Below, piece by piece: positions 1 to 11,019 of a DNA stretch of 11,019 nucleotides (position 1 is the stretch's first letter; each line of letters opens with the position of its first letter). The stretch lies in assembly GCA_028701635.1 (NCBI GenBank), contig JAQVQJ010000029.1:1-11019 (forward strand). Direction: 5' to 3'. Source of the DNA: Clostridia bacterium. GTDB lineage: Bacteria; Bacillota_A; Clostridia; Christensenellales; UBA1242. A program made the position numbers and the translations under genes. The notes under the pieces are model-generated. The model was not told the DNA's origin. It was given only the letters and a program-made list of their open reading frames with translations, and did not search any database.

Positions 1-664
1 AGAAATTTGAAGATCAATTTCGTGGAGATCAGAAGGAAATTCTTGGTCGTCAGCGCCAATATTTACGTTTTTTCATGAATGTAAAAATGTTATGGATATT
101 GGATGTGGTCGAGGTGAATTTATTGAACTTCTTCACAAAAATGGAGCTGGAGCTTTTGGAGTTGAAACAGATTCCGCTATGGTAGATGAGTGCAAGAGAA
201 AGAATTTAAATGTTGTAAATGATGATGTTGTTTCTTACCTTGAAGGACAAATTGGTCGTGAACAGCCTGATAATATTGATGGCATTTTCGTTGCTCAAGT
301 GGTTGAGCATTTGCACATGGATTATATTATAAAGATGCTTAGATTATGTTATAAAATTTTGCAAGAAGGTAAGTTTATCGTTCTGGAGACTATTAATGTT
401 AAGTCTCTCTCAACTTTTACGAATAGTGTTTATCTTGATCCGACTCATGTTAAGCCAATTCATCCTGAAACTTTAAAATTTTTGATAGAGTCAGTTGGGT
501 TTAAATTTGATGGATTTATTTTTTCTTCTGAATTTAAGCGTGATGAAAAGCTGGAGATAATTTCTGAAAATACTTCGCAGGACAAGATTTATAATAAAAA
601 TATCGCGCTACTTAATGAGCTTCTTTTTGCTCCCCAAGATTATGCAATTATCGCAAAAAAATAG
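1..664 (+). CDS. Class I SAM-dependent methyltransferase, 5'-partial, with apparent -1 frameshift
   Basis: Likely methylates a glycan or glycan terminus in the cytoplasm. From position 3 the first frame reads KFEDQFRG, then RQRQYLRFF, a conserved lead-in of polysaccharide-cluster methyltransferases. The rest lies one frame back: HECKNVMDIGCGRGEF holds SAM motif I (nucleotides 92-121), followed by the acidic GVETD strand end, the VAQVVEHL post-motif and a conserved YLDPTHVKPIHPETLKFL segment. The 5' end lies outside the window. Joining the frames at the T run near 68-74 restores a continuous family-like protein; the upstream frame alone stops at 183-185. ATG 92 is not a credible start because it falls inside motif I and has no ribosome binding site. 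The C-terminus overlaps the next gene by 23 bp. Related domains occur in WbdD-type O-antigen chain-terminating enzymes, but no kinase domain is visible, so a capping role is only a guess. The methyltransferase call is firm; the substrate is unknown. Confidence 0.85.
68..74 (+). other. Candidate -1 slippery heptamer T-TTT-TTC at the frame junction
   Basis: In the upstream frame the codons are CGT TTT TTC, so the heptamer reads T-TTT-TTC and matches the X-XXY-YYZ pattern used in -1 ribosomal slippage. Slipping back one base continues with CAT GAA TGT AAA AAT and enters the methyltransferase motif I frame. I see no strong stem-loop or internal Shine-Dalgarno sequence nearby. A missing T in the T6 run, from mutation or sequencing, would look the same. 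Confidence 0.4.
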
Positions 665-1820
665 AATCGCTATTGTAATTCCTTGGTTTGGGAAAGATGT
701 TCCGGGAGGCGCGGAAAATGCTACTAAATCTTTAATAGAGCATCTTAGCCCGTATTTTGATATAGAAGTTTTAACTACTTGTGTGGAAAATTTTCATTCT
801 GACTGGAATGATAATTTTTGGAAGGAGGGTGAATATTTTGAATTGGGAATTACCGTTAGGCGTTTTAAAGTTCGTAAAAGAGATGTTCTTAGATTTGATG
901 ATGTGAATGCTAAGCTTATGAGAGGCGAGAAGATTTCAACAGATGAAGAAAAGGTTTTTATTGAAGAATCGATTCGTAGTGATGATTTGACCGGTTTTAT
1001 TCATGATAATTTATCTGATTATAAATGGATTATTGCTATCCCTTATATGTTTGGGACAACTTACGATTCTATTCTTGAGGCATCGAATAAATCTATCTTA
1101 ATCCCTTGTTTGCATGATGAGAGTTATGCGTATTTAAATATATACAAAAAAATGTTTTCTGCGTCTCAAAAAATTCTTTTTTTGACAAATACGGAAATGG
1201 ATTTTGCCAAGAAATTGTTCTCTAGTGAAGTGTTGAAATTTAATTATGTAGGATTAGGGCTTGATGTAAACGTTCATGCTGATAAAGGTAAATTTAAAAA
1301 AAAATATAATTTTGATAATTTCGTGCTTTGTGCGGGACGAAAAGATGTTACTAAAAATACGCCTGAATTGATTGAGTTTTTTGATCGATATGTGAGAGAG
1401 ACAGATAGAGATATTAAACTTGTTTTAATTGGTCCGGGGAAATTATCTTTATTCGATAATCCGCAGATAATTGATTTGGGCTTTGTTTCCAAGGAGGATC
1501 AGTATAATGCTATGACAGACTGTTTGTTTTTATGCAATCCGTCACATAACGAGAGTTTTTCTATAGTTATTATGGAGAGTTGGCTTTGCAATAGACCGGT
1601 TTTAGTAAGCGAAAGTTGTGCGGTTACTCGTGATCATGTGGTATTAAGTAATGGAGGGTTATTTTATAAGGACTATAATGTTTTCAAAGAGTGTTTGGAT
1701 TACTTTCTAAATCATAAATTTGAATCTGATATTATGGGGCAAAATGGCAGAAAATATGTTTTAGATAATTTCAGCTGGGAAAAAGTGACTCAACAATATT
1801 TAAATGTTTTAAATGACTAA
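642..1820 (+). CDS. GT4-family glycosyltransferase (GT-B fold), paralogue of the 2901-4079 gene
   Basis: A retaining GT-B glycosyltransferase that probably transfers a nucleotide-activated sugar to a growing lipid-linked glycan at the cytoplasmic membrane face. From ATG 642 the protein has 392 residues. The N-terminal acceptor domain begins IAIVIPWFGKDVPGGAEN (residues 9-26) with the glycine-rich loop of GT4 enzymes. The C-terminal donor domain has AGRKDVTKN (231-239, K238 likely at the donor phosphates) and the E-x7-E signature E304-E312, followed by SNGGLFY (336-342). An in-frame ATG at 615 would overlap the methyltransferase by 50 bp. I chose 642 because it gives the same N-terminal phase and length (392 aa) as the paralogue downstream; neither start has a Shine-Dalgarno sequence. 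The stop overlaps the next start by 8 bp, so translation is probably coupled. Donor, acceptor and linkage cannot be read from the sequence. Confidence 0.9.
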   Translation: MQLSQKNRIAIVIPWFGKDVPGGAENATKSLIEHLSPYFDIEVLTTCVENFHSDWNDNFWKEGEYFELGITVRRFKVRKRDVLRFDDVNAKLMRGEKISTDEEKVFIEESIRSDDLTGFIHDNLSDYKWIIAIPYMFGTTYDSILEASNKSILIPCLHDESYAYLNIYKKMFSASQKILFLTNTEMDFAKKLFSSEVLKFNYVGLGLDVNVHADKGKFKKKYNFDNFVLCAGRKDVTKNTPELIEFFDRYVRETDRDIKLVLIGPGKLSLFDNPQIIDLGFVSKEDQYNAMTDCLFLCNPSHNESFSIVIMESWLCNRPVLVSESCAVTRDHVVLSNGGLFYKDYNVFKECLDYFLNHKFESDIMGQNGRKYVLDNFSWEKVTQQYLNVLND

Positions 1821-2901
1821 GATTGCTATACATCAATTTGCGGCCAACCTTTCATTCGGAGATGCAATTTCCAATGATATGTTGGAAATTCAGGCTGCTT
1901 TGATAAGACTTGGGTATGATTCAAAAATATATGCTCAGTATATGGATCCCCAAATGAGTGAATATTTTAATTTATTTACCGAATATAAAGGAGACTCAAA
2001 TAATTTGATTTTTTTTCATGCTTCAATCGGAGGTGATATTTTTGATTTAGTTAAGAATTTGCCCGACAGAAAAATTCTTATTTATCACAATATAACGCCT
2101 TCCAGTTTTTTTCGTGGATATAATGAACATTTGGCTAATCTTCTTGATCAGGGTGAGTGCAAATTGAAAGAGATTTTTCCTTATTTATCTTTTGCTGTTG
2201 GTGATAGCGATTTTAATAGAAATGATCTTGTTAAAATGGGGTTTTCTGAAGAAAAAACAGACGTTTTGCCGATATTTTTGGATTTTAAAAAATATGATAG
2301 TCCTCTTAATTCCAGATTGCAGAAGGATTTGAAGGCTGATGGAATTAAAAATATTTTATTCGTCGGTCGATTTGCGCCAAATAAGAGGCATGAAGATTTA
2401 ATTAAAGCTTTTTATGTTTATCATCGTTATTTTAATCATAAATCGCGGCTAATAATGGTTGGTGGACATAGTGGCATGGAAAATTATTATTTGCGCCTGA
2501 AGAAGCTTATAAAAATACTTGGGATGGAGGAATTTGTAGTCTTGGGGGAGCAGGTTTCTTTTGAGGATTTGGTTACCTACTATAAAACTGCGGACCTTTT
2601 CCTTTCTATGAGTGAACATGAAGGATTTTTTGTCCCAATTTTGGAATGTTTTTATTTGGGCGTTCCAGTTTTGGCTTATTTCGCTGCAGCAGTTCCTGAA
2701 ACTATGGGGGGAGCGGGTGTTATTTTTAAGGAAAAAAACTTGAAAAATGTTGCTGTGATGATGGATCAACTTATCACGGATAACTCATTCAAAACAAAAA
2801 CAATAAACTCACAGAAGCAACTGCTCGATGATTTTAAACGCGACGTTATAGAGCAGAAACTAAAATTAATTATCAATAAGGTATTAAGCTCAAATATATA
2901 A
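1813..2901 (+). CDS. GT4-family glycosyltransferase (GT-B fold)
   Basis: A 362-residue GT-B enzyme, likely one step in cytoplasmic assembly of the surface glycan. The N-terminal part has IHQFAANLSFGDAISNDM (6-23), a pattern common in polysaccharide-cluster GT4 proteins, and YHNITPSSFF (91-100). The donor domain starts near residue 178 with ILFVGRFAPNKRHEDLI (181-197; R186 and K191 are likely donor-phosphate contacts). The E-x7-E motif is E270-GFFVPIL-E278, followed by GVPVLAY (283-289). It is not close to the flanking GT4 genes, so it probably makes a different linkage. It starts 8 bp inside the previous gene and ends TAATG, a 1-bp overlap with the next start, consistent with one transcript and translational coupling. 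No recognisable ribosome binding site precedes it. Sugar specificity is unknown. Confidence 0.9.
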   Translation: MTKIAIHQFAANLSFGDAISNDMLEIQAALIRLGYDSKIYAQYMDPQMSEYFNLFTEYKGDSNNLIFFHASIGGDIFDLVKNLPDRKILIYHNITPSSFFRGYNEHLANLLDQGECKLKEIFPYLSFAVGDSDFNRNDLVKMGFSEEKTDVLPIFLDFKKYDSPLNSRLQKDLKADGIKNILFVGRFAPNKRHEDLIKAFYVYHRYFNHKSRLIMVGGHSGMENYYLRLKKLIKILGMEEFVVLGEQVSFEDLVTYYKTADLFLSMSEHEGFFVPILECFYLGVPVLAYFAAAVPETMGGAGVIFKEKNLKNVAVMMDQLITDNSFKTKTINSQKQLLDDFKRDVIEQKLKLIINKVLSSNI

Positions 2902-4079
2902 TGAAAAAAAAACTTGCTTTTGTAATTCAGAGATACGGGCTTGAAGTGAATGGGGGAGCTGAATTGCATTGTCGACAACTGGCAGAACATTTGAAAGATG
3001 ATTTTGATGTAGAGGTTTTGACAACCTGCGCGATTGATTATTACACATGGAAAAACGAATACAAGGAAGGTGAAACTGAAATAAATGGAATCAAGGTAAT
3101 TAGATTCCCAGTTGATTTTGAGAGAGATAAAAAGGATTTTGATAACTATACTCAAAAGGCTTTTGCCAATCCTGGGAATTTAGAAATTGGAGAGGAGTGG
3201 ATGAAAAAACAGGGACCCTATTCGTCAAAGCTTTTTTCTTATATTGAAGATAATCAGAATGATTACGATTATATTATATTTTTTACTTATTTGTATGCTA
3301 ATACTTATTTTGGAATGCAGAAAGTTAAGGATAAATCTAAAGTTGTGCTTGTGCCAACGGCTCATGACGAACCCCCTATTTATTTAAAAATTTTTGATAG
3401 CGTTTTTTCATGTCCGAGTAAAATTATTTATAATACTTACGCAGAGAGAAATTTTGTTTTTAACCGATTTAATAATAATCGAATTGAAAATATAGTGGCT
3501 GGTGTTGGAGTTGAGTTTCCTGAGCGCTATAGTGAAAATCATGGTCGGTTTAAAGCTAAATATAATCTTGATCATTACGCTCTTTACGTTGGAAGAATCG
3601 ATGAGTCCAAGGGGTGCAAGGAGATGTTTGAATATTTTTTGGATTATAAAAGGAATAATCCATCTTCACTTAAGTTGGTTTTGTTTGGGAAAGAGGAGAT
3701 TATTATACCTAAAACTGAAAATGATGATATTGTTTCTTTGGGATTTGTTAGTGACAATGATAAGTTTGATGGAATTTTCGGTGCTGATTTTTTGATCATT
3801 CCTTCTCGATATGAAAGTCTTTCAATGGTTTTGTTAGAGTCATTTTTGTGCGGAAAACCTGTTTTAGTAAATGGGAAGAGTGAAGTGTTAAAAGATCATT
3901 GTATCTCAAGCAATGGAGGACTTTGGTATGAAAATAAGTTTGAGTTTGTAGAGGAATGTGACGATCTTCTTTATAAGGAGGATTATAGTCGTTTATTGGG
4001 AGAAAATGGTGGTAAGTATGTCATGGAGAATTATTCGTGGCATAAGATTATAGAGAAGGTAATTCAAATTTTGTCTTAG
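2901..4079 (+). CDS. GT4-family glycosyltransferase, paralogue of the 642-1820 gene
   Basis: A 392-residue GT-B glycosyltransferase, expected at the cytoplasmic membrane face. The N-terminal domain has FVIQRYGLEVNGGAELHCR (7-25). The donor domain has LYVGRIDESKGCKEMFEYF (228-246, K237 in the basic donor-binding position), GFVS (281-284) and the E-x7-E pair E305-E313, then GKPVLV and SNGGLWY (337-343). It shares landmarks with the 642-1820 product in the same order: VEVLTTC, HDE, GFVS, ES(F/L)S, LV, a DH pair and SNGGL(F/W)Y, plus identical length. The two are therefore diverged duplicates, split by an unrelated GT4. It begins at the TAATG junction with the previous gene. A 28-bp AT-rich gap follows. 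The two paralogues may add similar sugars at different positions; that is inference. Confidence 0.91.
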   Translation: MKKKLAFVIQRYGLEVNGGAELHCRQLAEHLKDDFDVEVLTTCAIDYYTWKNEYKEGETEINGIKVIRFPVDFERDKKDFDNYTQKAFANPGNLEIGEEWMKKQGPYSSKLFSYIEDNQNDYDYIIFFTYLYANTYFGMQKVKDKSKVVLVPTAHDEPPIYLKIFDSVFSCPSKIIYNTYAERNFVFNRFNNNRIENIVAGVGVEFPERYSENHGRFKAKYNLDHYALYVGRIDESKGCKEMFEYFLDYKRNNPSSLKLVLFGKEEIIIPKTENDDIVSLGFVSDNDKFDGIFGADFLIIPSRYESLSMVLLESFLCGKPVLVNGKSEVLKDHCISSNGGLWYENKFEFVEECDDLLYKEDYSRLLGENGGKYVMENYSWHKIIEKVIQILS

Positions 4080-4107: not shown

Positions 4108-6570
4108 ATGCGTAGTTATCAAAGACCAATTATATTTTATTTTGAGCTGATTCTTATGTTTGTTGTGGCTGCAAGCGTTATTTCTGTTGCAATGCTTATG
4201 TTTAACGTGTTTCAGCCGCTAATTGTTATTTTATTAAGTTTTTGTTTGGTATTTTTTATATTTATTTTTAGACATTATAAACTTGAATGGAATGATTCTC
4301 GTTTTGGTTTTTCTTTATTGTTAGTTTTAGCTGTAGCGATTTTTTTCAGGTTAAGTCCTTATAATTATGTTCTTGGAGGGCAGGATCAGGGGGTTTATGT
4401 CAATATGGCCGCTTATTATTCCGAAAATGGATCAGCGTTTATAAATGACGATATTCGTGATCAATTAATTTCTGATTATCAGGATTTATACGATAAATTA
4501 AATCAAGGAAAAGTATGGCAATCCGGTACCGATCACCCTCGTTATGTAGCAGATAAATATGAAGGCAATCATCTTCCGGGGGTCTATATAAAAAACCTTG
4601 AAAATTCTGAATATGTTTTTCAGTTCTATCCATTGCATCCTCTTTGGATGAGCCTTTTTGGTGTAGTATTTGGTAATGGAGGCATGGTTTGGGCATTAAC
4701 TTTTTTCTCTTTGCTGTCTCTTATTGGGGCTTATTTAATTGCTTATGAGCTTTCTGGTCGCAGAAGGCTTGCGGGAATTATTTTAGCTTTGCTCTTAGCT
4801 ATTAATCCCTTGCATGCGTTTTTCTCAAAGTTTCCTGTAAGTGAAGTACCAGCGCTTGCTTTTACTTTTCTTGGTTTTTATTATCTCCTAAAATTTTATA
4901 ATGATTCTAAGGAACAAAAATCTAATATATTCGATTTGTTTTTTTCGAGTTGGATGTTTTTTGGATTATTTTTCACAAGAATAACCGGATTTATGTATAT
5001 CCCGTTCTTTTTATTGATTGGTTTTCTTTCATTTTTTCATAGTAATAGTGAGATTAAAAAAAATATTATTCTATATATTGTTAGTGTTATTGCCTTATTT
5101 ATGGGCTCTTTATTTTATGGATATTTTTATTCGTATCCTTATTTTAAGGATATATTTTTAATATCATTTAGTAAGCTTTTTGACATAGTAAGTTTGCATA
5201 TGTTGGTTGTGATCTGCATAGGAGGTTTGATGATGTTTGTTTTGGCAAAGTTTCATTTATTTAAAAAATTAAAGGAGCGGATGATTGATTTTATTGAATT
5301 TATACGGAAGTTATTGCCATATTTGTTTTATTCTATAATTATTTTGGGGGCATACAAGGCGTATATTTTTGCTTTTACCAATGCTACTGTAATGGATTCT
5401 CTTAACACGCGGTGGCAATTTGCTTATCAACAATGGAAGTCAATTGGGTATACAAGTTTAAGTGTCGAATTGACTTATCTTACTATTGTGGGTTTTTTAT
5501 TGTTGTTGATTGCGGTTTATTCTCTTGGTAAAAGCAGAAAAACCACTAACAATCTACTAGTGGTTTTCCTTTCAATGTTTTGGTTTTATATTTTGTTTTT
5601 GCAGTATAGGATTCCTTATCAATACTATTATGCGCGTTATCATTTAAGTGAAGTATTGCCGTTTTCACTATTGGCTGTCTCTATTTTTCTGACAGCTATT
5701 TGGTATAGAAAAAAATGGGGGAAATATTTTGTGCCTGTAATTGTGGGGATTATGTGTTTGTTTTTATTGCCAATAACTATGGTGCAGTTTGCTGGGGCTG
5801 AGAATGAAGGTGTCCATAAGCCTTTAGGAGAAATAGCCGAGATTGTTGAGGATGATATACTTTTAGTAGGGAAAAATATCTCTGATAGTATTGTCACTTC
5901 TTTGAAATTTTATTATGAATTAAAGGTTGTCAAATTTTCGCAAGATTGTGATAACAATAGTGAGTCTTTTGCGTTTATTAAATCACTTTCTGAAATAAAT
6001 AAAGGTGATATTTTTTATATTACAACTCGTGAAATTAATGATTCTACTTTGGAGTTTATGAATCGGATGTCTTTTAAATCAGGTTTATTTGAGCATGGGC
6101 CAAGACCCCCAACTAAATTTTTGTTTCATGAAATGGAGGATTTTTTCTTATATCGGATTGATGTGGACAATTTGAATCAAAGTTCTGAATTGTTCAGATT
6201 TTATATGGAAATTGCCAATTTTGATTTAGAAGGGTTTTATTCCGATAAATTGTGGACAAAAGGCGATGCTAGAATTGTCGATTTAGATTATAAAATTAAA
6301 ACTGATGATACGACTGTTGTTATTAAGCTTGCCGGATTTCATCCTTATAAAAATCAGCCGGACAAAATGGGGCTAAGGTTATTAATTAATGATGTTCCTG
6401 CCGAGTTTATTAAAGCGGATGATAAGAATTTTCATTATCATCTACCAGAAAATATTGAAACGATTCAGTCGATACAAATTATTTCAGCAACTTTTATCCC
6501 GAAAGATTTGGGGATAAATAATGACACTCGTGTGCTTGGAGTGGATGTAAACGCTATTAGTATTTTTTAA
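4108..6570 (+). CDS. GT-C type multi-span membrane glycosyltransferase (GT39/ArnT-like) with C-terminal soluble region
   Basis: An 820-residue membrane protein. Residues 1-560 hold roughly a dozen hydrophobic segments. The first extracytoplasmic loop, after about residue 80, carries VLGGQDQGVYVNMAAYY (88-104), with an Asp (D93) where GT-C enzymes keep a catalytic acidic residue. FYPLHPLW (173-180), SKFPVSEVPAL (240-250) and YARYHLSEVLPF (508-519) are other GT-C-like landmarks. Such enzymes use polyprenyl-phosphate sugars at the outer membrane face. Residues from about 565 are soluble: an alpha/beta-like stretch, then a beta-rich end starting near GFYSDKLWTKGDARI (709-723) that looks like a carbohydrate-binding sandwich (inference, no fold search done). 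The gene directly precedes a DPM1-like GT2 able to make such a donor. An exact 10-bp inverted repeat lies inside it (5539-5567). No ribosome binding site is seen. The acceptor is unknown. Confidence 0.82.
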   Translation: MRSYQRPIIFYFELILMFVVAASVISVAMLMFNVFQPLIVILLSFCLVFFIFIFRHYKLEWNDSRFGFSLLLVLAVAIFFRLSPYNYVLGGQDQGVYVNMAAYYSENGSAFINDDIRDQLISDYQDLYDKLNQGKVWQSGTDHPRYVADKYEGNHLPGVYIKNLENSEYVFQFYPLHPLWMSLFGVVFGNGGMVWALTFFSLLSLIGAYLIAYELSGRRRLAGIILALLLAINPLHAFFSKFPVSEVPALAFTFLGFYYLLKFYNDSKEQKSNIFDLFFSSWMFFGLFFTRITGFMYIPFFLLIGFLSFFHSNSEIKKNIILYIVSVIALFMGSLFYGYFYSYPYFKDIFLISFSKLFDIVSLHMLVVICIGGLMMFVLAKFHLFKKLKERMIDFIEFIRKLLPYLFYSIIILGAYKAYIFAFTNATVMDSLNTRWQFAYQQWKSIGYTSLSVELTYLTIVGFLLLLIAVYSLGKSRKTTNNLLVVFLSMFWFYILFLQYRIPYQYYYARYHLSEVLPFSLLAVSIFLTAIWYRKKWGKYFVPVIVGIMCLFLLPITMVQFAGAENEGVHKPLGEIAEIVEDDILLVGKNISDSIVTSLKFYYELKVVKFSQDCDNNSESFAFIKSLSEINKGDIFYITTREINDSTLEFMNRMSFKSGLFEHGPRPPTKFLFHEMEDFFLYRIDVDNLNQSSELFRFYMEIANFDLEGFYSDKLWTKGDARIVDLDYKIKTDDTTVVIKLAGFHPYKNQPDKMGLRLLINDVPAEFIKADDKNFHYHLPENIETIQSIQIISATFIPKDLGINNDTRVLGVDVNAISIF
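5539..5567 (+). terminator. Perfect 10-bp terminator-like hairpin inside the GT-C gene
   Basis: AAAACCACTA (5539-5548) and TAGTGGTTTT (5558-5567) are exact reverse complements around a 9-base loop. The stem core CCACTA is flanked by an A run on the left and TTTT plus a pyrimidine-rich CCTTTC on the right, the shape of a bidirectional intrinsic terminator. It encodes residues about 478-487 (KTTNNLLVVF) between two membrane segments, so the reading frame is uninterrupted. Whether it terminates or attenuates transcription is not shown. Confidence 0.4.
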
Positions 6571-6615: not shown

Positions 6616-7542
6616 ATGAAACTAATTATCCAAATCCCTTGTTATAACGAAGAAAAGACTTTGCCTTTGGTTTTCAAAGACCTCCCGAAGTATATCAAAG
6701 GGATTGATATTATTGAAACTCAAATAATCGATGATGGTTCTACGGATGATACAGTCAAAATCGCAAAAAGCTTGGGGGTGGATCATGTTGTGAAATATGT
6801 CGGGAACAAGGGGCTTGCTCGTGCTTTTAAAACCGGAGTTGAAAATGCTCTAAAACACGGAGCCGACATTTTGGTGAATACGGATGGGGATAATCAGTAT
6901 GATTCTGCTGACATTGCCAAATTGGTCCAACCTATTCTTGATGGGAAGGCGGATATTGTAATCGGGGATAGGCAGACAGGTAAAATCAAGCATTTTTCTT
7001 TTATAAAAAGGTTTTTTCAGTGGCTGGGGACCAGAGTTACCGGTTTTTTTGCCGGACAAAGAATGAATGATGCGGTGAGTGGGTTTCGTGCTTATACCAG
7101 AGAAGCATTGATTGAGATAAATGTTGTTTCGGAATTTAGTTATGTTCTTGATACTACGGTTCAGGCTATAAAAAAGAGGTTGAAAATAGTGCATGTGCCT
7201 ATCAGAACTAATTTGCCTACAAGAAAATCGCGGTTGTTTAAGAGTATTTGGGAGCACATGAGGAGATCTGCGGCCGATCTTATAAGGATTTATTCTTTGT
7301 ATGAACCTTTTAAGGTGTTTTTGTCTTTGGCGGTGATTTTTATTCTTTTGGGGACTTATCCTGTGGCTCGATATCTATATTTCTTCTTTATCGGGCAAGG
7401 AGGTGGGCATGTGCAGTCTCTTATATTCGGATCTATTTTGTATATAGTCGGATTTCAGTTCCTTGGACTTGGGATTTTGGGTGAGCACATGAGGATAAAT
7501 AGGAAGTTGATTGAGGATATTTTAAAGAGACTAAAGAAATAA
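6616..7542 (+). CDS. GT2 polyprenyl-phosphate glycosyltransferase (DPM1/GtrB/ArnC-like)
   Basis: A 308-residue GT-A enzyme expected to transfer a sugar from a nucleotide sugar to undecaprenyl (polyprenyl) phosphate at the inner membrane face. The N-terminus IIQIPCYNEEKTLP (4-17) is the family opening. IIDDGSTDDT (37-46) binds the nucleotide, NTDGDNQYD (88-96) contains the metal-binding acidic cluster, and NDAVSGFRAY (151-160) and PTRKSRLFKS (201-210) are conserved in DPM-like proteins. Two membrane segments, about 233-258 and 266-288, form a C-terminal anchor as in GtrB/ArnC rather than the soluble yeast-type enzyme. The protein ends in a basic tail. It follows the GT-C gene by 45 bp and would supply that enzyme's lipid-linked donor (inference). 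Its TAATG end overlaps the next start by 1 bp. The sugar could be mannose, glucose or another hexose; sequence alone does not tell. Confidence 0.92.
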   Translation: MKLIIQIPCYNEEKTLPLVFKDLPKYIKGIDIIETQIIDDGSTDDTVKIAKSLGVDHVVKYVGNKGLARAFKTGVENALKHGADILVNTDGDNQYDSADIAKLVQPILDGKADIVIGDRQTGKIKHFSFIKRFFQWLGTRVTGFFAGQRMNDAVSGFRAYTREALIEINVVSEFSYVLDTTVQAIKKRLKIVHVPIRTNLPTRKSRLFKSIWEHMRRSAADLIRIYSLYEPFKVFLSLAVIFILLGTYPVARYLYFFFIGQGGGHVQSLIFGSILYIVGFQFLGLGILGEHMRINRKLIEDILKRLKK

Positions 7543-8354
7543 TGAAGGCTATTTTGTTTATAACTAAAAATTATTATTTAATTAAATTTGGGATGATTCA
7601 AGCGATGAATTTCCATCCTATGCCGAGATATTTGATGCGTAAAAATGCTATTATTAAAATAATAAAAAAATTTTCATATAACAATAAAAAACTATTAGAA
7701 ATTGGATATGGTGCGGGAGAAATTTTTTCTACATATCTTCAGCTAGGAATCAAGTGTTATGGATATGATTTTTCGGAAGAGGCGTATAAGTATACATCAA
7801 AAAATTTTGATAGCACCGTAGCATTGTATAAAAAAGAAGATGACATTCAAAAATTTGACTTTGACTTTGTTGTTGCTTGTGAAGTTTTAGAACATATAGA
7901 AAACGAGGAACAAGCCTTGTTGAATTGGAAGTCATATTTAAAAAAGAATGGAGTGCTTATTATTTCTGTGCCTGCGCATCAAAATCGCTGGGATGATAAT
8001 GATATTTCAAGTGGACATTTTAGAAGATATGAAAAAAATAAATTGAAAGAATTATTGAATAAATGGGGTTACCAAGTAGAAATGTTTTATACATATGATT
8101 TTCCATCTTGTTTCGTATTGGATCCAATTAGATCTAATAGGGCGAAAAAAATGCATTTATCTAACAAAAGCACGTGTATAAACAAGGAGGAGTTCACTAA
8201 AATAAGTGGTATAGCAAGAGATGAAAATAAGATTTTTAAGTTTTTTTCCAATAAATATTTTTGGCATCCTCTAATAAAATTCCAAGAACTATTTTATAAA
8301 TCTAATTTAGGATCAGCTTATATTGTTGCTTGCACACAAAAAATGAATGATTAA
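7542..8354 (+). CDS. Class I SAM-dependent methyltransferase
   Basis: A 270-residue Rossmann-fold methyltransferase, probably acting on a sugar or lipid-linked glycan given its neighbours. LLEIGYGAGEI (51-61) is motif I (SAM-binding glycine loop). CYGYDFSEEAYKY (72-84) ends the second strand with the acidic D76 expected to bind the SAM ribose. FDFVVACEVLEHIE (107-120) and GVLIISVPAH (137-146) match motifs II-III. The later W150, SGHFRRYE (157-164) block is frequent in methyltransferases of polysaccharide clusters. The start at 7542 shares its A with the preceding TAA stop (TAATG), so translation may be coupled. About 45 residues precede motif I. The gene is visibly richer in AAA, AAT, ATA and AGA codons than the genes upstream and resembles its downstream neighbour, suggesting a separate origin. 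It is not similar to the 1-664 methyltransferase beyond the fold. Substrate unknown. Confidence 0.88.
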   Translation: MKAILFITKNYYLIKFGMIQAMNFHPMPRYLMRKNAIIKIIKKFSYNNKKLLEIGYGAGEIFSTYLQLGIKCYGYDFSEEAYKYTSKNFDSTVALYKKEDDIQKFDFDFVVACEVLEHIENEEQALLNWKSYLKKNGVLIISVPAHQNRWDDNDISSGHFRRYEKNKLKELLNKWGYQVEMFYTYDFPSCFVLDPIRSNRAKKMHLSNKSTCINKEEFTKISGIARDENKIFKFFSNKYFWHPLIKFQELFYKSNLGSAYIVACTQKMND

Positions 8355-8378: not shown

Positions 8379-9320
8379 ATGAATTTTATTAGTTTTGAAC
8401 AATTAAACGATTGTATTTATAAGAATCTACACAAGGTGCCAAGAGATATTGATTTAATAGTAGGGATTCCTAGAAGTGGAATGTTACCAGCAACTATCTT
8501 GGCATTATATCTAAATCTACCATTTGTAGACATAGACAGTTTTTTAAGTGGGACAATTTATCAAACTGGCAATACAAGAAAATGTGAAAACTGGATCAAA
8601 TGCGCAAAAGATGCAAAAAAAATATTAGTGATAGACGATAGTATTAGTACTGGAAAAGCTATTCAACAGGCAAAAGAACAAATAAAACAATCTAATATCG
8701 ACTGTGAAATTTATTTTTGTGCAATTTATGCACTAAGTTTAAATTTTTTCATGGTAGATGTTTTTTTTGAAGTTTGCAATCATCCAAGAATGTTTGAATG
8801 GAACTATATGCATCATTGGGGATTGAAATACTCCTGTGTTGATATAGATGGCGTTTTATGTCGCGATCCGAACTTTTATGAAAATGATGATGGGGAAAAG
8901 TATATTAAATTTATTAGAAATGCACTTCCAAAATTTTTACCAACAAAACCTATTGGCTATATTGTATCTGCAAGATTAGAAAAATATAGGAATGAAACAG
9001 AGAAATGGTTGCAAAAGTATAATATTAAATACGATAATTTAATAATGCTTAACTGTGAAAACAGTAAAGAGCGAATAAAAAGTGTAAATCAAGGGGAATT
9101 TAAGGCAAATGTTTATAAAAATTCAGACTGCTTTCTTTTTATTGAAAGTAATCTGGAACAAGCAGTAGAAATATGCAAACTATCTCATAAACAAGTTTTT
9201 TGTACTGCAAATAGAAGATTAATAAATCCAAATAATTTAAATAATTATGTTCAAATATTGTTAAATGATTGGAGAATTACGCTAAAAAGAGTTATCAAAA
9301 AAATATTAAAGAAAATATAG
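8379..9320 (+). CDS. Phosphoribosyltransferase-HAD phosphatase fusion protein, possible ribofuranose-forming enzyme
   Basis: A 313-residue two-domain protein. Domain 1 (about 1-135) is a type I PRT fold: DLIVGIPRSGMLPA (25-38), VDIDSFLSG (50-58) and the PRPP loop ILVIDDSISTGKA (82-94) with the diagnostic acidic pair D86-D87 and TG. Domain 2 (about 150-285) is HAD-like: VDIDGVLC (154-161) gives nucleophile D155 and acid/base D157, IVSAR (195-199) gives motif II S197, K242 is a motif III candidate, and FIESN (254-258) occupies motif IV with one acidic residue. The linker has HPRMFEWNYMHHWG (135-148). A basic tail (303-312) ends it. PRPP-dependent phosphoribosyl transfer followed by HAD dephosphorylation is a known route to ribofuranose in bacterial glycans, for example the H. 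influenzae type b capsule polymerase. This gene would carry both steps; that is inference. Nucleotide salvage is the main alternative. Codon use is A-rich. Stop TAG is followed at once by a second TAG. Confidence 0.85.
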   Translation: MNFISFEQLNDCIYKNLHKVPRDIDLIVGIPRSGMLPATILALYLNLPFVDIDSFLSGTIYQTGNTRKCENWIKCAKDAKKILVIDDSISTGKAIQQAKEQIKQSNIDCEIYFCAIYALSLNFFMVDVFFEVCNHPRMFEWNYMHHWGLKYSCVDIDGVLCRDPNFYENDDGEKYIKFIRNALPKFLPTKPIGYIVSARLEKYRNETEKWLQKYNIKYDNLIMLNCENSKERIKSVNQGEFKANVYKNSDCFLFIESNLEQAVEICKLSHKQVFCTANRRLINPNNLNNYVQILLNDWRITLKRVIKKILKKI

Positions 9321-9407: not shown

Positions 9408-9421
9408 AGCTTTTTAAAGCT
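9408..9421. repeat. 14-bp AT-rich palindrome at the convergent gene ends
   Basis: AGCTTT-TT-AAAGCT is a perfect inverted repeat reaching into the stop codon of the minus-strand gene. On the plus strand it is followed after three bases by TTTTT, so it could be a weak end signal for plus-strand transcripts. The stem is mostly A-T and the loop small, so it may be chance in this AT-rich DNA. Confidence 0.25.
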
Positions 9422-10400
9422 ATATTTTTGGTGGTGGTTGAAAAGATAATGACTTGTTTTTGTTTTTGATCTTATATATTGTTGCATAAATTCCTAATAA
9501 TCCGTCTCCAATTATTGTTGCTGATCTGGAAGCTATTGCTATGAAAACTCCTATTTCAATTGGAAAAAATCTGGTTAGAAGTAAAGCCAAGATGCCTTCC
9601 CTCACTCCTAATCCTGCCGGAATGAATATTGCCAGCATTCCAATTGTGCCTGAAAAAGACAAAAAACTTACGATTTCCGTAAAATGAGATATATTAATTG
9701 TTGTTATACTATTAATCATGATGAAGAAAGCGAAGCCATTTAGAATTTGGATGCTTAGATATTTTAATGAGAAAAAAAATATTTCTTTAAATGATAGGAA
9801 TTTGAATTTTTCTATTTTTTGTTTTTTGGCTATTTTTAGCAGTAAATTTGATGCCGTATGAAATATTTTTGGATGTAGGAGTAGCAAAATAATTGGAATA
9901 AGTATTATAATTCCCGCTTTATATGAAAAGGAGTTTTTTATTGATTCGGGAGCAAGGTAATAAATCAATGGAATACTTGCTATCAATCCTGAAAATATTT
10001 GTAAAAGCATTTCGTATATCGTGCATATTATGCATGTTTTTGTATCTATTCCGTTTTTTTTGCCAAAATAAGTTTTTATTACAGCTATACTTATATTTCC
10101 TGGTATGTATCGGCTTATCCAGGCTATGCTTTGTATATATAAGATGTAAAACAACTTAAATTTCACTTTTCCTAATTTGTGTAATATGTCATGCCAAAAT
10201 ACGCCTAATAAAATAGGGCTTACTGTGAATATAAAAATTGAAATTATAAACAAAGAAAAATTAAAATCCCATTTGTAGGCTACTATTTTTGTCCAGTTAT
10301 AGTATGTGAATTTTGTAAAAAAGAACACTATTAGAAAAATAATTACTACTTTTAAAATAAAAAGAGTCTTTATTCTAATTTTATTTTGATTTTTTTTCAT
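9420..10400 (-). CDS. UPF0104/AglD-like (LPG_synthase_TM) multi-span membrane protein, flippase-like
   Basis: A 326-residue integral membrane protein with about eight hydrophobic segments after a basic N-terminus (MKKNQNKIRIK). Conserved landmarks of the lysylphosphatidylglycerol synthase transmembrane/UPF0104 superfamily are present: SRYIPGN (96-102) after the second helical pair and IFIPAGLGVREGILALLL (258-275) near the C-terminus, then SRSATIIGDGLLG (291-303). Members such as archaeal AglD and the flippase half of MprF act on lipid-linked substrates. This protein has only the membrane half and no aminoacyl-transferase domain, so it is not MprF. A role in moving or modifying a polyprenyl- or glycerolipid-linked sugar is inferred from context. 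Its ATG overlaps the dehydrogenase stop as ATGA (10397-10400), indicating one operon. A GGGAGG lies 14 bases before the ATG but is too distant and is coding sequence. It converges with the PRT-HAD gene across 99 bp. Confidence 0.8.
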   Translation of the reverse strand: MKKNQNKIRIKTLFILKVVIIFLIVFFFTKFTYYNWTKIVAYKWDFNFSLFIISIFIFTVSPILLGVFWHDILHKLGKVKFKLFYILYIQSIAWISRYIPGNISIAVIKTYFGKKNGIDTKTCIICTIYEMLLQIFSGLIASIPLIYYLAPESIKNSFSYKAGIIILIPIILLLLHPKIFHTASNLLLKIAKKQKIEKFKFLSFKEIFFFSLKYLSIQILNGFAFFIMINSITTINISHFTEIVSFLSFSGTIGMLAIFIPAGLGVREGILALLLTRFFPIEIGVFIAIASRSATIIGDGLLGIYATIYKIKNKNKSLSFQPPPKI

Positions 10401-11019
10401 TTTTTATAGATATTCCTCCCATCCAAAATCAATCCCCCTTTCATCGCTTTTTTCATTCCCTCAATATCCACACTTCTAAATTCATCCCATTCGGTTGCGA
10501 CTATCAAGGCATCTGCGCCTTTTACTGCGTCCTGAGAGTTTTTTGCGTAATAAATGTACGGGAGGATCTTTTTTGTATTTGGCATGGCTACCGGGTCGAA
10601 TGCTCGTATTTTTGCGCCTTCCTTTAGTAATTTTTCAATTATTTTCAGCGCTGGGGCTTCTCGCACATCATCAGTTTTCGGTTTAAATGCCAGTCCCCAA
10701 ACCGCTATCACTTTTCCTTTCAAATTTGGGATTTGTTTTTTTAGTTTTTCAAGCAGTAGATCTATTTGTCTGTGATTTACTTCTTCTGTAGCTTTCATAA
10801 TTTTAAATTCATACCCATATTCTTCTCCGGTTTTTATCAGGGCTTTTACATCTTTTGGGAAACAGCTTCCGCCGTATCCGATTCCCGCGTGCAAAAATCT
10901 TGGTCCTATGCGGTTATCCAAACCTATTCCTTTTGCTATTTCTTGAATATTTCCGCCCGCTTTTTCACAGAAATTCGATATTTCATTGATGAAAGAAATC
11001 TTTGTGGCGAGGAATGAAT
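10397..11019 (-). CDS. ugd: UDP-glucose 6-dehydrogenase, C-terminal part (5'-partial at window end)
   Basis: Oxidises UDP-glucose to UDP-glucuronate with two NAD+ in the cytoplasm, giving a charged sugar donor for the surface glycan. About 206 residues are visible. They begin FLATKISFINEISNFCE, the central helix of the family, followed by GIGLDNRIG and the catalytic block GIGYGGSCFPKD with its active-site Cys. The C-terminal domain has VIAVWGLAFKPKTDDVREAP, then IRAFDPVA and LIVATEWDEF, ending GRNIYKK. The N-terminal NAD-binding domain is beyond the window edge. A TTG at 10921 (in GLDNRIG) is internal, not a start, because the family sequence continues unbroken upstream to 11017. It is co-directional with and overlaps by ATGA the membrane protein downstream. 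UDP-mannose/ManNAc dehydrogenases are relatives, but the GGSCFPKD context and C-terminus fit the UDP-glucose enzyme best. Confidence 0.93.
   Translation of the reverse strand, partial: SFLATKISFINEISNFCEKAGGNIQEIAKGIGLDNRIGPRFLHAGIGYGGSCFPKDVKALIKTGEEYGYEFKIMKATEEVNHRQIDLLLEKLKKQIPNLKGKVIAVWGLAFKPKTDDVREAPALKIIEKLLKEGAKIRAFDPVAMPNTKKILPYIYYAKNSQDAVKGADALIVATEWDEFRSVDIEGMKKAMKGGLILDGRNIYKK

What the first reader, a model, noticed from the sequence alone, without database searches (positions are those of the whole stretch)
8379..9320. Single-chain PRT-HAD fusion: candidate self-contained ribofuranosylation enzyme
A PRPP-loop phosphoribosyltransferase fused to a HAD phosphatase inside a glycosyltransferase cluster matches the chemistry of the known two-step route to ribofuranose in bacterial polysaccharides: transfer of ribose 5-phosphate from PRPP to a glycan, then removal of the phosphate. 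No base- or nucleotide-metabolism gene is nearby. Having both activities in one short protein would make ribosylation a portable cassette. The HAD motif IV is minimal (one acidic residue), so phosphatase activity needs proof.
Basis: partly seen in the sequence, partly recalled or inferred. Interest (0 to 1): 0.75.

Follow-up and report, generated by a model that had tools for sequence, protein, structure and literature searches.

The report
Glycan-linked phosphoribosyltransferase–phosphatase fusion enzyme
A small two-part enzyme, found in sugar-polymer gene clusters across many microbes and sometimes fused directly to sugar-transferring enzymes, looks like a second, separately built way of adding ribose to cell-surface sugars, though no activity has been measured.

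Summary
The ORF is real: 313 aa, 8379-9320, a phosphoribosyltransferase (aa 1-145) joined to a HAD phosphatase (aa 147-280) in a glycosyltransferase cluster. It belongs to a patchily spread family seen in several bacterial phyla, an archaeon, plasmids and viral contigs. Of 88 loci, 75 have a detected glycan-assembly gene within five genes; 0 of 20 control PRT loci do. Five fused proteins from four sources, in three domain orders, join PRT-HAD to GT2 or GT4 glycosyltransferases. The PRT fold is closest to 6-oxopurine PRTs, but the purine-specific Asp and Lys are rarely kept, while PRPP-site and HAD catalytic residues nearly always are.

Best reading: a PRPP-dependent ribofuranosyltransferase that transfers ribose-5-phosphate to a glycan, then removes the phosphate. 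This is inferred; nothing has been assayed. The single-chain concept is already published for gPRT-PRP enzymes. This family lacks three traits described for the Bcs3 prototype (split acidic pair, helical bundles, large phosphatase cap), so it looks like a separate, compact solution to the same chemistry: a new variant of a known kind.

The parts
8379..9320 (+). PRT-HAD fusion protein, 313 aa
   Evidence: ORF; PF00156; AlphaFold2 model pLDDT 91.8
8379..8813 (+). PRT domain, aa 1-145
8463..8480 (+). GIPRSG loop (aa 29-34), expected pyrophosphate-binding loop
   Evidence: R32 and G34 each 86 of 87 loci, the other a gap; role recalled from PRT literature
8628..8660 (+). PRPP loop VIDDSISTGKA (aa 84-94)
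   Evidence: D86 84 of 87 (3 Glu), D87 87 of 87, G92 85 of 87 loci
8784..8804 (+). PRMFEWN motif (aa 136-142), predicted acceptor side of the site
   Evidence: R137, F139, W141, N142 each 87 of 87 loci; W141 aligns with a Trp of purine PRTs
8817..9218 (+). HAD phosphatase domain, aa 147-280
8841..8861 (+). HAD motif I DIDGVLC (D155 expected nucleophile, D157 acid/base)
   Evidence: D155 85 of 87, D157 86 of 87 loci; both 119 of 119 P proteins
8964..8990 (+). HAD motif II region (aa 196-204, [ST]xR)
   Evidence: R199 87 of 87, S/T197 87 of 87 loci
9102..9104 (+). HAD motif III Lys K242
   Evidence: 87 of 87 loci, 119 of 119 P proteins
9138..9149 (+). HAD motif IV FIES (E256)
   Evidence: E256 87 of 87 loci, 119 of 119 P proteins
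9237..9314 (+). C-terminal basic helix, aa 287-312, predicted membrane-association tail
   Evidence: helix in model; net basic tail in most cellular members printed (not the 158-residue tail of L037); unfused viral members printed end within 2-9 residues; membrane role inferred
7542..8354 (+). SAM methyltransferase, 24 bases upstream of the PRT-HAD gene, same strand
   Evidence: Methyltransf_23 E 1.9e-17; same cluster (c37) directly downstream of the PRT-HAD in L001, L004, L005
6616..7542 (+). GT2, polyprenyl-phosphate-sugar-synthase-like
   Evidence: Glycos_transf_2 E 2.6e-21; closest NCBIfam AglJ, 102 bits, cut-off 325
4108..6570 (+). 820-aa hydrophobic protein, GT-C-like by inference only
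   Evidence: no Pfam match at E<=0.01
615..4079 (+). three GT4 glycosyltransferases (615-1820, 1813-2901, 2901-4079)
   Evidence: Glycos_transf_1 E 4.6e-13, 1.1e-20, 1.8e-14
92..664 (+). second SAM methyltransferase
   Evidence: Methyltransf_23 E 1.5e-10
9420..10400 (-). PF03706 LPG_synthase_TM membrane protein
   Evidence: E 6e-18
10397..11017 (-). UDP-glucose/GDP-mannose dehydrogenase, cut by the window end
   Evidence: PF03720 E 8.7e-35

Best explanation
A PRPP-dependent ribofuranosyltransferase of cell-surface glycan assembly, in one chain. Step 1 (inferred): the N-terminal PRT domain binds Mg-PRPP through the D86-D87 loop and the GIPRSG loop and transfers ribose-5-phosphate, with inversion, to a hydroxyl of a glycan (probably lipid-linked at the membrane, where the basic C-terminal helix would hold the enzyme), giving beta-Ribf-5-P. 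Step 2 (inferred): the C-terminal Pnkp-like HAD domain (D155 nucleophile, D157, T/S197, R199, K242, E256) removes the 5-phosphate, leaving a beta-ribofuranosyl residue that other GTs extend or methyltransferases may modify. Shown here: predicted fold, residue conservation, glycan neighbourhoods, GT fusions. Not shown: activity, acceptor, product.
For: PRPP-site residues and the expected HAD catalytic residues are invariant or nearly so across 87 loci and 119 metagenomic homologues. 75 of 88 loci have a glycan-assembly gene within 5 genes, 72 within 2, against 0 of 20 loci of other PRT genes chosen from non-member hits of the same profile. Of 84 immediate neighbours, 13 match Glycos_transf_2, 10 Glyco_trans_1_4, 9 Polysacc_synt (Wzx type), 6 PS_pyruv_trans, 4 Wzy_C (families can overlap). 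Fusions: GT2-PRT/HAD-TPR-multiple GTs (L054, L062; near-identical), PRT/HAD-GT4 (viral contig L084; and L141), GT2...PRT/HAD (L112). Position of the purine catalytic Asp is Asp in 5 of 206, of the O6-Lys Lys in 2 of 206. Closest HAD structures are polynucleotide (ribose-phosphate) phosphatases. The same chemistry is established for another PRT-type plus HAD pair, gPRT-PRP (passages).
Against: No assay, no acceptor, and no carrier with a published ribose glycan was found in the searches made. A Ribf-rich glycan from the Rhizobiaceae (Liberibacter crescens LPS, passages) gives no support: 12 of 394 Rhizobiaceae genomes matched and all 12 are 5.9-6.7 Mb, so none is Liberibacter-sized; whether L. 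crescens was among the 394 is not known. The PRT fold is a 6-oxopurine PRT fold, and W141 aligns with their Trp. 13 of 88 loci had no glycan gene detected within 5 genes. On Pfam inspection of some neighbours, L014, L020, L027, L028, L029, L033 and L087 still show none, L038 only an acyltransferase, and L016 was not scanned. L115, the only whole-length member besides the seed in the 299-genome Bacillota sample, sits beside a helicase and a ketopantoate reductase and has Glu at the HAD nucleophile position.
Confidence: 0.6

Rival explanations
1. The PRT domain phosphoribosylates a small molecule or lipid carrier (for example polyprenyl phosphate), and the HAD domain makes the free riboside, which the neighbouring GTs then use. 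Same chemistry, but the acceptor is not the growing glycan.
For: Basic C-terminal helix and a GT2 of the polyprenyl-phosphate-sugar-synthase-like cluster c21 one or two genes upstream in six loci including the window. The published three-component pathway makes a polyprenyl-linked ribose donor.
Against: The polyprenyl phosphoribosyl synthases described there are UbiA-type membrane enzymes, not soluble PRTs. Direct fusions to GT2 and GT4 domains fit a glycan acceptor better.
Confidence: 0.18
2. A nucleobase PRT plus nucleotidase: it makes a nucleoside monophosphate from a base and PRPP and dephosphorylates it, so the product is a nucleoside; the glycan context would be incidental, or the nucleoside a glycan decoration.
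For: Closest fold is 6-oxopurine PRT; W141, aligned with the Trp of purine PRTs, is 87 of 87; the HAD resembles nucleic-acid phosphatases.
Against: The catalytic Asp position is Asp in 5 of 206 and the O6-Lys position Lys in 2 of 206 (roles recalled). Best NCBIfam match is 33 bits against a cut-off of 138. Control PRT loci show no glycan genes (0 of 20), these loci do (75 of 88). GT fusions.
Confidence: 0.12
3. A PRPP-binding regulator or scaffold of glycan assembly (PyrR-like use of a PRT fold), with a HAD domain acting on some other phosphate.
Against: The HAD active site is nearly invariant and so are the PRPP loop and W141, which suits catalysis by both halves.
Confidence: 0.06

Closest known systems
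gPRT-PRP dual-domain ribofuranosyltransferases (K. pneumoniae O4/O7, H. influenzae b Bcs3 CriT/CrpP, E. coli K13 KrkA)
   Same: A PRT-type domain and a HAD phosphatase in one chain or pair, in glycan clusters, at times fused to other GTs; PRPP donor expected here by inference
   Different: CriT has three helical bundles and D680/E818 from two loops in place of the vicinal DD; CrpP has a 98-residue cap (393-490) and only the first Asp of DXD. Here: vicinal D86-D87, a ~145-aa PRT without bundles, both Asp of DXD, no cap of that size. Domain order also differs from Bcs3 (CrpP before CriT), but the K13 paper's passage calls the gPRT module the N-terminal one, so order is not relied on
6-oxopurine phosphoribosyltransferases (XGPRT, HGXPRT GpT-2)
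   Different: Catalytic Asp and O6-Lys rarely kept; PRxFxWN motif; glycan context; HAD fusion
Pnkp-type HAD 3'-phosphatases (T4 Pnkp, bacterial Pnkp1)
   Different: Single acidic residue in motif IV (ES; DD in T4 Pnkp is recalled); joined to a PRT instead of a kinase
Polyprenyl phosphoribose synthase with PRP domain (C. youngae ORF15)
   Same: PRPP plus a HAD phosphatase in one chain for ribose in glycans
   Different: Transferase half is a UbiA membrane enzyme, not a PRT fold

Membership tests
gPRT-PRP ribofuranosyltransferases | PRT domain with an acidic pair from two loops in place of the vicinal DD, and helical bundles HB-1 to HB-3 (as in CriT) | tested here: not met
   Vicinal D86-D87 in the family; predicted model has no bundles in aa 1-145; CriT description from passages of PMC10299916
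gPRT-PRP ribofuranosyltransferases | PRP HAD with a large alpha-helical cap (98 residues in CrpP) after motif I | tested here: not met
   Motif II (V196) lies 41 positions after D155, with one helix between (aa 173-181); cap size
gPRT-PRP ribofuranosyltransferases | Domain order | tested here: inconclusive
   PRT then HAD here; PRP then gPRT in Bcs3, but the K13 paper describes the gPRT module as N-terminal
gPRT-PRP ribofuranosyltransferases | Detectable sequence kinship to known members | tested here: inconclusive
   No Bcs3 or T. composti name among the 27 PDB sequences at E<=1; no direct alignment with a gPRT was made
gPRT-PRP ribofuranosyltransferases | PRPP-dependent transfer of Ribf-5-P to a glycan and dephosphorylation | not testable with these tools
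   needs enzyme assay
6-oxopurine PRT | PRT type I fold with PRPP loop | tested here: met
   on a predicted model
6-oxopurine PRT | Catalytic Asp in the PRPP loop (DxxDTG) and O6-binding Lys | tested here: not met
   Asp in 5 of 206, Lys in 2 of 206; positions from the alignment; roles recalled
6-oxopurine PRT | Scores above a curated purine PRT cut-off | tested here: not met
   best 33 bits against 138
HAD superfamily phosphatase | DxD, S/T, K and acidic motif IV in a HAD Rossmann fold | tested here: met
HAD superfamily phosphatase | Phosphatase activity | not testable with these tools
   needs assay

The most novel reading that the evidence does not exclude
Evolution built PRPP-dependent ribofuranosylation of glycans a second time: a purine-type PRT stripped of its base chemistry was fused to a Pnkp-type phosphatase, giving a ~300-aa module that moves between bacteria, archaea, plasmids and viruses and is plugged directly into GT2 and GT4 polypeptides. 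If so, ribose-containing glycans exist in many phyla where the known gPRT/PRP marker would not find them.
Probability: 0.45. Interest if true: 0.75.

Novelty: new variant of a known kind. Interest (0 to 1): 0.6.

Why it matters
Ribofuranose in bacterial polysaccharides was traced to PRPP only recently, through the gPRT fold. A smaller PRT-HAD family with a canonical PRT fold, spread over several phyla and fused to GTs, would show that the chemistry arose more than once, would give a marker for ribosylated glycans in genes now named 'phosphoribosyltransferase family protein', and would offer a compact enzyme for glycan synthesis.

Tried and rejected
Considered and set aside: nucleobase salvage as the main function (purine-specific residues rarely kept; but fold and Trp agree, so it stays a rival); decay of the phosphatase (motif IV invariant); membership of the gPRT-PRP family (anatomy differs). 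No Bcs3 or other gPRT chain is among the rows shown by Foldseek or VIA-align, which does not exclude kinship.

Led nowhere: no whole genome is held for the window. The viral scan with one protein found no relative, with the alignment 8 loci, one partial. Annotated phage records: no match in 50,697, so the hosts, and even the viral nature, of those contigs stay unsure. The 2022 gPRT paper is not held. Searches for a carrier with a published Ribf glycan gave no case (for Liberibacter). Literature searches that showed no description of this family: (open-licence PMC papers only; I saw listings, plus passages of six papers: and one whole section).

Limits of counts: of 278 relatives in genome contigs only the best 80 were kept. 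L088 (partial) was left out of the neighbourhood and residue counts; L112, L115, L141-L143 and the plasmid copies came later and are in neither. In one search eight targets missed by my ORF caller were placed by position, and the three fused loci then known were counted as having a glycan gene. Gene calling was a simple longest-ORF method. The count used phmmer to Pfam-verified proteins; on Pfam inspection L081, L086 and L011 (GT87) gained a glycan family above cut-off and L007 a Wzy_C match below it. For the neighbour tally 84 of 86 immediate neighbours of 43 chosen loci were scanned (window:9423-10400 and L081:6842-7156 left out), and 25 of 66 families were shown. The 20 control loci were picked by me among non-member places in one Bacillota sample; 17 of their targets are 434-490 aa, taken from length to be PurF, 3 are 176-183 aa, and several contigs end near the gene.

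Full report

Family. The protein search returned 2,892 proteins at E<=1e-3 among 3,773 candidates; the 120 listed (one of them the window's own) are 51-71% identical otherwise and 311-359 aa. How many of the unlisted are true members is not known. In genome contigs 278 of 295 candidate stretches encode relatives; the best 80 were kept. Viral contigs gave 8, one partial. Sampling by phylum shows patchy presence: 4 of 247, 7 of 249 and 2 of 244 genomes at E<=1e-20 in the phyla of L018 (Bacteroidota), L010 (Pseudomonadota) and L014 (Cyanobacteriota), each count including the seed genome. In the phylum of L003 (Bacillota) 48 of 299 genomes matched at E<=1e-3, but only two over the whole length: the seed and the divergent L115; the others are partial matches, E 1e-7 or weaker. 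Rhizobiaceae: 12 of 394 at E<=1e-10, seed included. Plasmids: 41 of 72,556 records. Annotated phages: 0 of 50,697. In a 42-row tree the Methanospirillum protein lies in a 7-row set with the window and Bacillota rows (100/98), which suggests transfer between domains of life.

Residues. Over 87 loci and 119 metagenomic proteins, for the loci: D86 is Asp in 84 (3 Glu), D87 in 87, R32 in 86 (one gap); R137, F139, W141 and N142 in 87. In the HAD half D155 in 85, D157 in 86, T/S197 in 87, R199 in 87, K242 in 87, E256 in 87. The TRK of the flexible loop, constant in the close group, is not kept in distant members. The profile alignment to the S. solfataricus HGXPRT places the purine catalytic Asp at position 90 and the O6-binding Lys at 119 (roles recalled); these are Asp in 5 and Lys in 2 of 206 proteins. 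So PRPP binding is kept and purine recognition is not, while W141, aligned with the Trp of purine PRTs, is kept. The last point is compatible with stacking of a base or of a sugar.

Neighbourhood. With Pfam-verified GT2, GT4, Wzx, Wzy, pyruvyl-transferase, Wzt, UDP-sugar dehydrogenase and other proteins as phmmer queries, 75 of 88 loci have such a gene within five genes and 72 within two (three fused loci counted in). The control, 20 loci of other PRT genes that the same profile had hit, gives 0 of 20. Pfam on 84 of the 86 immediate neighbours of 43 chosen loci: 13 Glycos_transf_2, 10 Glyco_trans_1_4, 10 Methyltransf_23, 9 Polysacc_synt, 6 PS_pyruv_trans, 4 Wzy_C; 25 of 66 families were shown. 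The Wzx-type cluster c6 occurs in 15 loci; in 13 of the 77 loci printed it is an immediate neighbour (12 alphaproteobacteria and the KSB1 locus L008; Pfam). Methyltransferases pair with the gene in distant lineages (cluster c17 in 7 loci, c37 in 4 including the window), so an O-methylated ribose or neighbour sugar is a possible product detail (inference). Exceptions are told under evidence against.

Fusions. L062 (3,366 aa) and L054 (2,099 aa, cut by the contig end), two near-identical Bacteroidetes MAG proteins, carry GT2, then PRT-HAD (aa 307-592), TPRs and several further GT domains. L084 (viral contig, 623 aa) is PRT-HAD then GT4. L141 (unnamed Rhizobiaceae genome, 916 aa) is PRT-HAD then GT4; its PRT part is seen by the family profile (E 1.4e-80) and tblastn (41% over aa 1-276), not by Pfam at E<=0.01. 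So there are five proteins, four sources and three domain orders. These tie the module to glycan assembly more directly than neighbours can.

Mobility. Paracoccus marcusii plasmid pMARC4 (15,289 bp, mobilizable) carries a 'lipopolysaccharide biosynthesis protein', the PRT-HAD gene 35 bases on and a glycosyltransferase 25 bases on, all on one strand, followed by a GT2 and a nucleotide-sugar dehydrogenase on the other.

Comparison with what is known. Passages and one section of PMC11127046, and passages of PMC10299916, PMC11231755 and PMC12887879 describe the gPRT-PRP enzymes: PRPP donor, Ribf-5-P transfer, HAD dephosphorylation, in one chain or two, at times fused to GTs. The original 2022 paper was not held. 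So the chemistry and the single-chain idea are published. The present family differs from the Bcs3 description in keeping the vicinal DD motif, in lacking CriT's three helical bundles, in keeping both Asp of DXD, and in lacking CrpP's 98-residue cap. Order differs from Bcs3 too, but the K13 paper calls the gPRT module N-terminal, so I do not rest on it. KrkA's C-terminal amphipathic helices are thought to bind the membrane, as proposed here for the basic tail. No direct sequence or structure comparison with a gPRT was made. None of the searches named under Tried and rejected showed this family described as a glycan enzyme.

Judgement. Ribofuranosylation of a glycan is the best-supported function (0.6), by inference from chemistry, residues, context and fusions. 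A lipid carrier, a small molecule or a nucleobase as acceptor remains possible. Novelty: a new variant of a known kind.

Noticed in passing
L145 (Rhizobium beringeri plasmid pRlX4), L037 and related Rhizobium loci: The Rhizobium plasmid copies (PRT-HAD with a long C-terminal extension, 158 residues in L037) lie with glycosyltransferases; in L145 T6SS-type genes (VgrG, DUF4150, DUF2169) follow, and in L037 a caspase-domain Sel1-repeat gene lies upstream.
   Followed up: no
L115:8544-9398 (-): A divergent Bacillota copy has Glu in place of the HAD nucleophile Asp and an altered motif II, and lies near a ResIII/DUF3427 helicase and a ketopantoate reductase; possibly a phosphatase-dead branch with another role.
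   Followed up: partly
L010, L013, L017, L026, L058, L059, L142 and others: In rhizobia and relatives a GMC oxidoreductase of about 480 aa (cluster c13, 9 loci) and a ~150-aa protein without Pfam match (c15, 8 loci) recur close by; they could modify the ribose or a neighbouring sugar.
   Followed up: no
L082, L083, L085 (viral contigs): A viral cassette GT2 - (CmcI methyltransferase in L082, L083) - methyltransferase - PRT-HAD - nucleotide-sugar-transferase-like gene recurs, hinting at virus-encoded glycan building.
   Followed up: partly
L054, L062: Giant glycosyltransferase polypeptides (2,099 aa, cut by the contig end, and 3,366 aa) with GT2, PRT-HAD and TPR modules, and GT4 in the longer one, in two near-identical Bacteroidetes MAG contigs.
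   Followed up: partly
4108-6570 (+): An 820-aa hydrophobic protein with no Pfam match, perhaps a GT-C type enzyme, beside a polyprenyl-phosphate-sugar-synthase-like GT2.
   Followed up: no
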